A stretch of 64,000 nt of DNA from Candidatus Contendibacter sp. (GTDB lineage: Bacteria; Pseudomonadota; Gammaproteobacteria; Competibacterales; Competibacteraceae), in contig JARSSO010000059.1 in the NCBI GenBank assembly GCA_029624765.1, positions 62,001 through 126,000 on the forward strand. The letters are read 5' to 3'. Position numbers and translations under genes: made by a program. The notes under the pieces are model-generated. The model searched no databases. It was not told where the DNA came from and saw only the letters and a list, made by a program, of their open reading frames with translations. This document shows positions 27,991-31,464 of the stretch, in pieces. Each line of letters opens with the position of its first letter. Position 1 is the stretch's first letter.

Positions 27991-30900
27991 ATGCTGGAAG
28001 AACAGATTCGGAAAATCATCGAATTGCGCCACGACGCGCCTTACGCGATTCTGGGACCTCATTATGTTGAAGGGGAGCGGGCGCTGATCGTCCGCGCCTT
28101 CCTGCCGTGGGCCGAACGCGCCTACGTCCTGCCAGCCGATGGCGCCGGCAAACGCGAGATGCAGCGATTGCGGCCGGATGGCGTGTTCACCGCCCGCTTT
28201 CCCGGCGTGAGGGAGTTGGAGTACCGACTGGTTGCCGTCGATGCCGGCGGCCAGTCCCTCACCTTCCGCGACCCCTACGCCATTCACGAGCCGTCCTTCA
28301 GCGCCGCCGACGGGCAGGCATTGCGGCGGGGAACACTGGAAACCCTGTTCACCAAGCTGGGCGCGCACCTGCGCATGAAGGACGGCGTCGTCGGCATCAA
28401 CTTCACGCTCTGGGCGCCCTGCGCCAGTCGGGTCAGCGTGGTTGGAACCTTCAACCAGTGGGATGGCCGCCGCCATCCAATGGAACGGCACGAGTCCGGA
28501 GTCTGGGAATTGTTCATCCCCGATCTGGGCTTGGGCGAGCTGTACAAATACGAGATTCGCAACGCGGAAGGGGCGGTGTTTCTCAAGTCCGACCCGCTGG
28601 CGTTCCAGACCGAGGCCTATCCCAAGACCGCCGCCTTCACCTGCGATATTCAACGCCGCCACGACTGGGGCGACGGTCCCTGGATGGCGCGCGCCATGGA
28701 AACGCCCGGCTGGGAATTGCCGGTCGCCCTGCACCGGGTCACCTTCGACGAGGCCGCCGAGCCGGGTCCGGAGCGGGTCGCCGGTTACGGCCAGTTGCGG
28801 GACCGGGTCCTGCCGCATCTGCTGGAGCGAAAGTTCACCCACGTCGAACTGGCGTTTTGGGCCGCTGGCGAAACCGTGGCGAGTTACTACGCCCCCAACC
28901 CGCGTTATGGCCGGCCCGAGGAGCTGATGGCGTTCATCGATGCCTGCCACCGACGCGACATCGGCGTCGTGCTCGACTGGATTCCGCCGTGGATTCCGCG
29001 CGAGGGCCAGGAGCTGAGCTGGTTCGACGGCGCGCGGATTTACGACCGCGACGTCCCAAACGAGCCGGGGATGCTGACCTTCGATCTGGAACGGCCGGAA
29101 GTCGGCAATTTTCTGGTGGCCAACGCCCTGTTCTGGCGGCAGGTCTACCATGTGGACGCGCTGCGGACCGATGCCCGCACCTATGCTGCTCGCTTGGGGA
29201 TGGCGGGGACGGCGGCGGGTTTGCGGTTCCTGATCCGGGAGCATGCAGCCAGACCCACGTTGACGGCGGAACAAAGCAACGCGCTGGTTCAGGGGCGCCA
29301 TGCCGATCCGCATGGCCTGCTGGGACCGCATCCGTTGGCGTGGGAGCCGGGGTTGAGCGTGGCGCGCGCTCTGCTGCCGGACGCGGAAGGCCCCTGTCTG
29401 CTGCCCGAGGACCGGCCCAACCTGTTGTATCCATTGCAGCCTTTGTACGAAGGAGGGCTGTTCGAAACCATCGTCGTCGCCGACGCGAATACGCTGCGTT
29501 ACCGGTTGGGCGCGATCGAGCATGGCCAACATCACGTTTTCGCCGATCCCTATGCGTTCAAATTCTCGAATCTCGGTGATCAGGATTGCTACCTGTTCGC
29601 CGAGGGCAATCATTACCGGATCTTCGAAAAACTGGGCGCGCACGCTGGCCAGGTCGCCGGGGTCGCCGGGGTCAACTTCGCGGTCTGGGCGCCGAACGCC
29701 CAGCGGATCAGCGTGGTCGGCCGGTTCAACCACTGGGATGGTCGTCGTCACCCGATGCGGCTGCGGCCGGGCTCGGGGATTTGGGAGCTGTTCGTGCCCG
29801 GCCTGGGCGAAGGGGAACTTTACAAGTTCGAGATTCTGCCCCGCACCGGTCCCGTGTTTCTGAAGACCGATCCCTACGCTTTTCATACCGAGGCGCCGCC
29901 GGGCACCGCCAGCGTGGTCTACGATCCAGTCGGCAAGCATGTCTGGCGCGATGGCGACTGGATGGAGCGGCGGGCGCGGAGCAACGTCTGGGAACGGCCG
30001 GTGGCCATTTACGAAGTCCACGCCGGTTCCTGGCGCCGCAAGCCGGACGGCGGCTTTCTGTCCTATCGCGAACTGGCCGACCAGTTGATTCCCTACGTGC
30101 TGGAAATGGGATTCACCCACATCGAATTCCTGCCGCTGGCCGAGCATCCCTACGGGCCATCCTGGGGCTATCAGATTTCCAGCTTCTACGCCCCGACCGC
30201 CCGCTATGGCCGCCCGGACGATTTGATGGAATTGATCGATCGCTGCCATCAAAACAACATTGGAGTCATTCTCGACTGGGTGCCGGCGCATTTTCCCAAG
30301 GACGCCCACGCCATGGCCTGGTTCGACGGCACCTGCCTGTACGAACACGCCGATCCGCGCCAGGGCGAGCATCCGGACTGGGGGACCCTGATCTTCAACT
30401 ACGGCCGCCACGAGATCGAGAATTTTCTCATCGCCAATGCGCTGTACTGGTTGGAGAAGTTTCACTTCGACGGCCTGCGGGTGGACGCGGTGGCCTCGAT
30501 GCTGTACCTGGATTATTCCAAGAAGGACTGGATTCCCAACAAGTACGGCGGCAACGAGAATCTTGAGGCCATCGAGTTTCTTCGCCACACCAACGCCGTG
30601 GTGCATGACCAGTTTCCCGGCGTGATGATGATCGCCGAGGAATCCACCGCCTGGCCGAACGTGTCGCGACCCACCGACATCGGCGGGCTGGGGTTCGGGT
30701 TCAAGTGGAACATGGGTTGGATGCACGACGTGCTGTTCTACATGGCGCAGGCGCCGGTTCATCGCCGCCACCATCACGACAAGCTGACCTTCGGCATCGT
30801 CTACGCCTTCAGCGAGAACTTCATCCTGTCGCTGTCGCACGATGAAGTGGTGCATTTGAAGAAATCACTGCTCGGCAAGATGCCGGGCGCCGAGCGGCAA

Positions 30901-31464
30901 CAACTCGCCAACCTGCGGCTGCTGTACACCTTCATGTACGCTCATCCCGGCAAGAAACTGCTGTTCATGGGCGGGGAATTCGGTCAGCCCGGCGAATGGA
31001 ACCACGACGCCGGGCTGGAGTGGGAATTGCCGCGCGGCAAGCCCCCGCATCGGGGATTGCAACGGTTCGTGGCCGATCTCAACGCGCTGTACGTCCGGGA
31101 ATCGGCGCTGCACCAGGTGGATTTTCGTGGCGCCGGCTTCGAATGGCTGGACGCGAACGCCGCCGAAACCAACGTCATCGCCTTCGCGCGCAAGGCCCGC
31201 GACCCGCGCGAGGCGGTGGTGGTGGTGTTGAATTTTTCCGACCAGTCCTACCCGCGATACCGCATCGGCGTGCCGTATCCGGTCGCGTATCGCGAGTTGT
31301 TGAACAGCGATGCCCGCGAGTACGGCGGTTCCGGCGGGACGCTGCTCGACCGGCGGGTGGCGGCCGAGGAAGTTTCCAGCCATGGCTTCGCCTTCTCCAT
31401 CGTCCTCGATTTGCCGCCGTTGAGCGCGATGGTGCTGAAACCGGCGCCGCCGAAGCTGGAATGA
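27991..31464 (+). CDS. glgB: 1,4-alpha-glucan branching enzyme, tandem two-module form
   Basis: A 1157-residue protein, against about 630-730 for usual GlgB. The C-terminal two thirds (from about 420) is a complete GlgB: N1 module, CBM48 (VVGRFNHWDGRRHPM), and GH13 barrel with nucleophile D832 (DGLRVDA), acid/base E883 (MIAEES) and D951 (LSHDEV). The first 420 residues are a second, incomplete copy: N1-like (DAPYAILGPH), CBM48 (VVGTFNQWDGRRHPM) and the first half of a GH13 barrel. That copy stops just after DALRTDA (D394) and lacks the other two catalytic acids. The truncated copy probably binds glucan rather than catalyses. The role is making alpha-1,6 branches in glycogen. No other glycogen genes are adjacent. 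Confidence 0.93.
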   Translation: MLEEQIRKIIELRHDAPYAILGPHYVEGERALIVRAFLPWAERAYVLPADGAGKREMQRLRPDGVFTARFPGVRELEYRLVAVDAGGQSLTFRDPYAIHEPSFSAADGQALRRGTLETLFTKLGAHLRMKDGVVGINFTLWAPCASRVSVVGTFNQWDGRRHPMERHESGVWELFIPDLGLGELYKYEIRNAEGAVFLKSDPLAFQTEAYPKTAAFTCDIQRRHDWGDGPWMARAMETPGWELPVALHRVTFDEAAEPGPERVAGYGQLRDRVLPHLLERKFTHVELAFWAAGETVASYYAPNPRYGRPEELMAFIDACHRRDIGVVLDWIPPWIPREGQELSWFDGARIYDRDVPNEPGMLTFDLERPEVGNFLVANALFWRQVYHVDALRTDARTYAARLGMAGTAAGLRFLIREHAARPTLTAEQSNALVQGRHADPHGLLGPHPLAWEPGLSVARALLPDAEGPCLLPEDRPNLLYPLQPLYEGGLFETIVVADANTLRYRLGAIEHGQHHVFADPYAFKFSNLGDQDCYLFAEGNHYRIFEKLGAHAGQVAGVAGVNFAVWAPNAQRISVVGRFNHWDGRRHPMRLRPGSGIWELFVPGLGEGELYKFEILPRTGPVFLKTDPYAFHTEAPPGTASVVYDPVGKHVWRDGDWMERRARSNVWERPVAIYEVHAGSWRRKPDGGFLSYRELADQLIPYVLEMGFTHIEFLPLAEHPYGPSWGYQISSFYAPTARYGRPDDLMELIDRCHQNNIGVILDWVPAHFPKDAHAMAWFDGTCLYEHADPRQGEHPDWGTLIFNYGRHEIENFLIANALYWLEKFHFDGLRVDAVASMLYLDYSKKDWIPNKYGGNENLEAIEFLRHTNAVVHDQFPGVMMIAEESTAWPNVSRPTDIGGLGFGFKWNMGWMHDVLFYMAQAPVHRRHHHDKLTFGIVYAFSENFILSLSHDEVVHLKKSLLGKMPGAERQQLANLRLLYTFMYAHPGKKLLFMGGEFGQPGEWNHDAGLEWELPRGKPPHRGLQRFVADLNALYVRESALHQVDFRGAGFEWLDANAAETNVIAFARKARDPREAVVVVLNFSDQSYPRYRIGVPYPVAYRELLNSDAREYGGSGGTLLDRRVAAEEVSSHGFAFSIVLDLPPLSAMVLKPAPPKLE

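What the first reader, a model, noticed from the sequence alone, without database searches (positions are those of the whole stretch)
27991..31464. Tandem branching enzyme with a half-length second GlgB at its N-terminus
Seen: 1157 residues with two N1-CBM48 sets. The first GH13 barrel stops after the nucleophile-equivalent D394 and lacks the acid/base and third carboxylate, while the second barrel is complete. Inference: an internal partial duplication, with the first copy turned into an extra glucan-binding module that could alter branch length or anchor the enzyme to granules.
Basis: partly seen in the sequence, partly recalled or inferred. Interest (0 to 1): 0.55.

Follow-up and report, generated by a model that had tools for sequence, protein, structure and literature searches.

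The report
Branching enzyme with dead half-copy fused
In a family of sewage bacteria known for storing glycogen, an enzyme that puts branches into glycogen carries at its front a second, half-sized copy of itself that has lost its catalytic parts but is kept under selection, most likely as an extra glucan-holding module.

Summary
Confirmed, with corrections. Window 27991-31464 encodes 1157 aa: a degenerate GlgB-like half (aa 1-~418: N1, CBM48, half a GH13 barrel) fused to a complete GlgB (aa ~429-1157); the halves are 43% identical. The genome belongs to Competibacteraceae, glycogen-accumulating sewage bacteria. The tandem or pieces of it occur in 29 of 39 family genomes; no tandem was seen outside the family in samples of 369 (class) and 398 (phylum) genomes at strict cut-offs. 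Not an assembly artefact. The N copy is catalytically dead in 21 of 21 orthologues (H340, Y300, W298 equivalents and the second barrel half lost); the C copy is intact. Correction: the first barrel does not stop cleanly after D394; a helix and a beta5-like stub with a conserved Glu/Asp follow (tentative). N1 and CBM48 of the N copy are nearly as constrained as in the C copy; only the barrel is relaxed. It has 38 conserved residues of its own. Best reading: a tethered non-catalytic glucan-binding module; binding is inferred. Internal duplication is compatible, not shown. New variant of a known kind.

The parts
27991..31464 (+). tandem glgB gene, 1157 aa plus stop
27997..28278 (+). N copy: N1 domain (GlgB_N, aa 3-96)
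   Evidence: Pfam PF22019
28354..28602 (+). N copy: CBM48 (about aa 122-204, placed by alignment to the C copy's 547-630); W157 = E. coli W159 (glucan site IV), kept in 21 of 21 orthologues
   Evidence: site IV residue from PMC10254366 Table 1 (passage)
28720..29196 (+). N copy: first half of the GH13 barrel (about aa 244-402), beta1 to beta4 and the helix after it; H340 and Y300 equivalents replaced, S297 and W298 deleted, D394 at the nucleophile position kept
29218..29244 (+). N copy: beta5-like stub (aa 410-418), L411 and L414 invariant, residue 417 acidic in 21 of 21 orthologues
   Evidence: alignment tentative, low pLDDT
29245..29286 (+). linker (aa 419-432), fast evolving; whole protein about 48 and 66 aa longer in L027 and L028, where the linker is Asp/Glu/Ala-rich
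29275..31461 (+). C copy: complete GlgB (aa 429-1157)
29629..29880 (+). C copy: CBM48 (aa 547-630)
   Evidence: Pfam PF02922
30484..30486 (+). C copy: nucleophile D832
30637..30639 (+). C copy: acid/base E883
30841..30843 (+). C copy: third carboxylate D951
31144..31443 (+). C copy: C-terminal all-beta domain (aa 1052-1151)
   Evidence: Pfam PF02806
27267..27818 (+). upstream neighbour, LTXXQ-family protein, 183 aa; found by tblastn in 18 of 34 loci searched (16 distinct, two being re-fetched copies; the other 16 include loci with little upstream sequence and loci of other GlgB genes)
27837..27870 (+). terminator-like hairpin (15 pairs) between the LTXXQ gene and glgB
   Evidence: consensus match only, 2 sites found against a shuffle mean of 1.3

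Best explanation
The protein is a catalytically complete GH13_9-type glycogen branching enzyme (C copy) with a non-catalytic accessory module in front that derives from a branching enzyme (N copy: N1, CBM48, half barrel). The module is tied on by a variable, probably flexible linker. Shown: two-copy anatomy, loss of essential active-site residues in every N copy examined, intact C copy, purifying selection on the N copy (tightest in CBM48), occurrence through most of one bacterial family. Inferred: the N copy keeps a glucan-contacting face on CBM48 (and perhaps N1), holds a glycogen chain or the particle surface, and so keeps the enzyme on glycogen and/or shifts which chain lengths it transfers; the half barrel is the body on which these domains sit, and its remodelled former active-site face may bind something of its own.
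For: Two GlgB_N and two CBM_48 stretches, one C domain. N copies: H340 equivalent His in 0 of 21, Y300 equivalent 20 E and 1 D, S297 and W298 deleted in 21 of 21, no counterpart of H525/D526; C copies keep all. The CBM48 site IV Trp (E. coli W159) is kept in 21 of 21. Median Nei-Gojobori dN/dS over 161-164 of 210 pairs (dS under 1.3): N1 0.225 against 0.194 in the C copy, CBM48 0.153 against 0.144, half barrel 0.175 against 0.050, linker 0.488: the clear relaxation is in the catalytic part. 63 of 127 GlgB-invariant columns are kept in at least 19 of 21 N copies, 45 are lost in at least 19; 38 positions are newly conserved. The N half alone is predicted with mean pLDDT 89.0, pTM 0.89 and superposes on known branching enzymes (8zqa_C: Z 31.8, 309 aligned, rmsd 2.7). 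Linker length varies between orthologues. Published work ties the single N1 domain to transferred chain length (PMC6339891, passages) and maps glucan sites on E. coli GlgB, one of them on CBM48 (PMC10254366, passages; that W159 lies in CBM48 follows from the alignment).
Against: No binding data. W159 is conserved also in 69 of 69 single GlgBs, so it may be kept for structure. Of the 12 E. coli glucan sites only IV, VII, X and XII lie in the part the N copy retains, and the residues named for VII, X and XII (W262, W278, F294) are not conserved in N copies; this weighs little for VII and X, whose residues vary in single GlgBs too. CBM48 dN is higher in the N copy (median 0.159 against 0.117). 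A plain binding module would not need a half barrel that holds 20 of the 38 newly conserved positions. Full-length pTM is only 0.75, so the placement of the copies relative to each other is unknown.
Confidence: 0.6

Rival explanations
1. Regulatory pseudoenzyme: the former active-site face of the half barrel was rebuilt into a binding site for a small ligand or a partner protein, and the N copy controls or docks the C copy rather than simply holding glucan.
For: Replacements at the old catalytic face are uniform, not random: H248 (Y246 in E. coli), E294 and T295 (Y300, Q301), N303, P304, Q340, E341, R349, D352, D354, T397 and R401 are each the same in at least 20 of 21 N copies and present in at most 5 of 69 single GlgBs. 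D394 (20 D, 1 E) and an acidic residue at 417 (21 of 21) persist though catalysis is gone.
Against: No ligand, partner or regulatory neighbour gene identified; the nearest neighbours are an LTXXQ protein and an MFS transporter. Constraint in the half barrel is no stronger than in CBM48 (0.175 against 0.153).
Confidence: 0.22
2. Structural scaffold: the half barrel pairs with another half barrel or with the C copy, and the N copy mainly sets quaternary structure.
For: A lone half barrel leaves strand edges open (established knowledge of the fold); some N-specific conserved residues are hydrophobic or aromatic (W290, L366, L277).
Against: Variable linker length (about 48 and 66 aa longer in L027 and L028, acidic) argues against one rigid arrangement; no interface could be tested here.
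Confidence: 0.1
3. Tolerated relic of a failed duplication without function.
For: Catalytic residues lost; half barrel evolves faster than the matching C part, and the linker fastest.
Against: Median dN/dS 0.187 across the N copy, 38 newly conserved positions, occurrence in 8 of 13 genera, one open frame in 22 genomes.
Confidence: 0.06
4. Assembly or annotation artefact.
For: Mostly draft genomes; one relative (G003, L124) has its copy in broken frames.
Against: One open frame with the full match in 19 family genomes and in 3 more with a longer linker; the copies are only 43% identical.
Confidence: 0.01

Closest known systems
GlgB, bacterial GH13_9 glycogen branching enzyme, Type 1 (N1 + CBM48 + GH13 + C domain), e.g. 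E. coli GlgB, Cyanothece BE1 (5GQU), M. tuberculosis GlgB (3K1D)
   Same: The C copy has the whole architecture and all catalytic residues; about 50% identity to the Cyanothece structures
   Different: A second, truncated, inactive GlgB stands in front of it
Type 3 branching enzymes with a putative 'N0' region of over 100 aa ahead of N1 (PMC6339891, passages)
   Same: Extra N-terminal sequence ahead of the N1 of the active enzyme
   Different: Here the extra part is over 400 aa and is itself N1-CBM48-half GH13; that survey kept only sequences of 500-1000 aa, so a 1157-aa protein would fall outside it
PRK14705-type long branching enzymes (NCBIfam NF011293, 1224 positions)
   Same: Over 1100 aa with a C-terminal GlgB
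   Different: Curated cut-off not met (981 of 2376 bits); the front part of that model is recalled as maltokinase-like, not GlgB (recalled, not tested)
Tandem starch-binding modules on starch-building enzymes, e.g. three CBM53 on starch synthase III (PMC6243121, passages)
   Same: Several glucan-binding modules in a row on a glucan-building enzyme
   Different: Here the extra module is a degenerate copy of the enzyme's own front half

Membership tests
GH13_9 branching enzyme (C copy) | N1, CBM48, GH13 barrel, all-beta C domain in order | tested here: met
   Pfam; NF003811 1224 bits against cut-off 741, (whole-protein score, both copies together)
GH13_9 branching enzyme (C copy) | residues equivalent to E. 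coli Y300, D335, H340, R403, D405, E458, H525, D526 | tested here: met
   invariant in 21 of 21 tandem orthologues
GH13_9 branching enzyme (C copy) | branching activity | not testable with these tools
   needs expression and assay
GH13_9 branching enzyme (N copy) | complete catalytic barrel with the active-site residues | tested here: not met
   H340 kept in 0 of 21, Y300 in 0 of 21, region IV absent
CBM48 (N copy) | CBM48 sequence profile and fold | tested here: met
   two PF02922 stretches; model and superposition
CBM48 (N copy) | glucan binding | not testable with these tools
   W157 (E. coli W159, site IV) kept in 21 of 21; binding not shown
Type 3 GBE (N0 region) | more than 100 aa ahead of the N1 of the active enzyme | tested here: met
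   about 430 aa ahead of it; what N0 is in that class is left open in the paper (passages)
PRK14705 long GlgB | curated score of NF011293 | tested here: not met
   981 of 2376 bits

The most novel reading that the evidence does not exclude
The N copy is a neofunctionalised branching-enzyme half that acts as the second hand of one enzyme: a dead GlgB surface that holds one glucan (for example the acceptor, whose binding place in bacterial branching enzymes is called a mystery in PMC10254366, passage) or senses a ligand at its rebuilt active-site face, while the C copy cuts and transfers. It would be a lineage-specific device of Competibacteraceae for building a fast-cycling glycogen.
Probability: 0.2. 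Interest if true: 0.65.

Novelty: new variant of a known kind. Interest (0 to 1): 0.42.

Why it matters
Competibacteraceae are known glycogen-accumulating organisms of wastewater treatment. A branching enzyme with a built-in inactive sister, found in most examined members of the family and not outside it in the samples searched, is a natural experiment on how N-terminal domains set branch length, and it gives a testable handle on acceptor binding in bacterial branching enzymes. It is also a case of a half GH13 barrel kept for a non-catalytic job.

Tried and rejected
Rejected: assembly artefact. Rejected as further tandems: six long open frames around GlgB matches in other Gammaproteobacteria (G194, G188, G172, G296, G185, G184 = L114-L119); each holds one GlgB (L115-L119; L114: BLAST only). 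Viral contigs: 33 pattern matches, none a relative. Rejected in the careful 36-row tree: N copies as sister of the family paralogues L121, L120+L031 or L029 (p-AU 8.6e-6, 4.0e-6, 3.1e-4). In the 64-row quick tree the L121 grouping was not rejected (p 0.104) and the L120-group test did not finish. In the careful tree the N clade branched near a Chloroflexota row with weak support (85/30), which I read as a long-branch effect (stem 1.12). hhalign of N copies against C copies and single GlgBs stopped at residue 396, so the beta5-like stub rests on the two models, the VIA superposition and a MAFFT profile merge only. No coordinates or error maps of the models were available, so contacts between the copies could not be examined. 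Rfam was not searched.

Papers: passages only of PMC6339891, PMC10254366, PMC9041414, PMC6243121 and PMC11046441; all others seen as search listings. No description of a tandem GlgB with an inactive half was met in these nine searches of one open-licence library; a Competibacter genome paper asked for by DOI is not held.
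Full report
What is there. The ORF 27991-31464 (+) encodes 1157 aa. Pfam gives two GlgB_N and two CBM_48 stretches and one Alpha-amylase_C. Residues 1-395 match 424-833 of the same protein at 43% identity over 411 columns. At DNA level the copies share only patches of about 70% identity, so the duplication or fusion is old. The 1034-aa ORF on the other strand (27751-30855) is taken as a chance frame in high-GC coding sequence (inference).

Whose genome. The window lies in a 4.29 Mb, 63-contig genome. Its closest relative with the tandem (91% identity, same genus) has a locus identical over 6468 bases to a contig titled Candidatus Contendobacter sp. SCELSE-3-Con. Two further tandem loci are titled Candidatus Competibacteraceae. 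That Competibacter and Contendobacter are glycogen-accumulating organisms is stated in PMC9041414 (passages).

Distribution. One search examined 39 genomes of the family and one other of the order. Among the 39: 19 show the tandem in one full-length row; 3 more (G027, G034, G059) in one frame with a longer linker; 7 show pieces at contig ends or in broken frames (G001, G003, G012, G024, G030, G031, G036; G031 shows only the C end); 10 show none in the rows listed (G009, G010, G013, G014, G016, G020, G023, G032, G035, G060). Of these 10, G010, G013, G014, G020 and G032 are at least 93% complete. The 29 span 8 of 13 genera. The one other genome, G037, shows none. In 369 genomes of the class (E up to 1e-230; 150 or so best rows listed, and the strict cut-off left two candidates a genome for scoring) the only three tandem rows are family members, the window included. 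In 398 genomes of the phylum (E up to 1e-255, 12 rows) the only tandem is the window itself. Among 80 named loci from GTDB genomes three are tandem, all Competibacteraceae, and these are re-fetched copies of L005, L017 and L023. That scan kept the best 80 of at least 594 matches, so independent tandems in other phyla are not excluded.

Catalytic state (E. coli numbering; 21 tandem orthologues, 69 single GlgBs). N copies: Y300 became E (20) or D (1); S297 and W298 deleted in 21; D335 kept in 18; H340 kept in 0 (L 15, W 2, R, Q, F, V); R403 kept in 17; D405 in 20 (1 E). Position 458 aligns to residue 417, E in 15 and D in 6, but this stretch is uncertain. H525 and D526 have no counterpart. C copies keep all of these in 21 of 21. 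The N copy can therefore hardly work as a branching enzyme (inference from established GH13 chemistry).

Where the first barrel ends. The N-half model (mean pLDDT 89.0, pTM 0.89) has a helix at 395-402 and a strand at 413-415; superposition runs to model residues 418-420 against 460-461 of E. coli GlgB structures. L411 and L414 are invariant in 21 of 21. The half thus looks like beta1-beta4 plus a beta5 stub, with the stretch between them shortened. Confidence there is low (block pLDDT 62-67, 71-75), and hhalign did not align the stretch.

Selection. Nei-Gojobori dN/dS, medians over 161-164 of 210 orthologue pairs (those with dS below 1.3; pairs are not independent): N copy 0.187, C copy 0.132; N1 0.225 against 0.194; CBM48 0.153 against 0.144; half barrel 0.175 against 0.050; linker 0.488. 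Median dN tells the same with one shade against: N1 0.219 against 0.212, CBM48 0.159 against 0.117, half barrel 0.183 against 0.041. So the sugar-binding-type domains are held nearly as tightly in the dead copy as in the live one, and the catalytic part is relaxed about 3.5-fold. Of 127 GlgB-invariant columns in the span, 63 are kept in at least 19 of 21 N copies, 45 are lost in at least 19, 19 are mixed; 38 positions are newly conserved, the first three residues included. Twenty of the 38 lie in the half barrel, many in the loops that formed the active site (placement read from the model's secondary structure, inference).

Origin. N copies form one clade and C copies another in both trees (100 and 99; 100/100 each), as expected from one event before the tandem-bearing genera split; the groups window+L005, L027+L028 and L014+L017+L019 recur in both halves. 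N+C together has SH-aLRT 85; in the second tree it lies 0.07 log-likelihood units below the best, p-AU 0.478. The N copy sits on a long stem (1.11-1.12), so its exact source is unsure. Internal duplication is the simplest reading; fusion with a lost sister gene is as compatible.

Context. The genome has two ordinary GlgBs elsewhere (C22, C31); the C31 one lies by glgX, glgC and malQ. Upstream of the tandem is an LTXXQ protein (27267-27818), which tblastn finds in 18 of 34 loci searched (16 distinct), then a hairpin that looks like a terminator (near the chance level). Downstream is an MFS transporter. No glycogen gene was found among the neighbours scanned from 16148 to 34082.

How it most likely works. 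The C copy cuts and re-attaches glucan chains as a normal branching enzyme. The N copy, tethered by a linker of variable length (proteins about 48 and 66 aa longer in L027 and L028, with an acidic linker), most likely offers a second N1-CBM48 face to the glucan. Work on ordinary enzymes links N1 to short-chain transfer (PMC6339891, passages), so doubling this end would be expected to shift the chain-length pattern or to hold the enzyme on the particle. This step is inferred. Against a rich glucan surface: of the E. coli sites in this half only the site IV Trp is kept; the residues named for sites VII, X and XII are not, though those of VII and X vary in single GlgBs as well.

Novelty. Branching enzymes with N-terminal extensions (Type 3) are described, but that survey kept only 500-1000 aa. 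No tandem GlgB with an inactive half turned up in the nine paper searches, which cover one open-licence library. I call it a new variant of a known kind.

Noticed in passing
window 16148-25282: Row of defence-like genes: PLD/SNF2-type helicase (best PADLOC model HKD+Snf2), Type IIG restriction-methyltransferase-like protein, AAA ATPase with a DUF4276-like partner (HEC-01-like), DprA-like protein.
   Followed up: partly
window 27267-27818: LTXXQ-family small protein (Spy/CpxP-like, name recalled) stays next to the tandem glgB in much of the family.
   Followed up: partly
L027, L028, L123: Tandem orthologues with longer linkers between the halves; Asp/Glu/Ala-rich in L027 and L028, composition not examined in L123.
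   Followed up: partly
L124 (G003): The tandem gene is read in several frames here: assembly errors or a pseudogene, not resolved.
   Followed up: no
L114, L116, L117, L118: GlgB frames in other Gammaproteobacteria with about 490-590 aa ahead of the GlgB part; no Pfam match there in L116-L118, L114 looked at by BLAST only. Fusion or overlapping chance frame, not checked.
   Followed up: no
window 34257-38012: Large PAS-GAF-GGDEF-EAL protein a few genes downstream.
   Followed up: no
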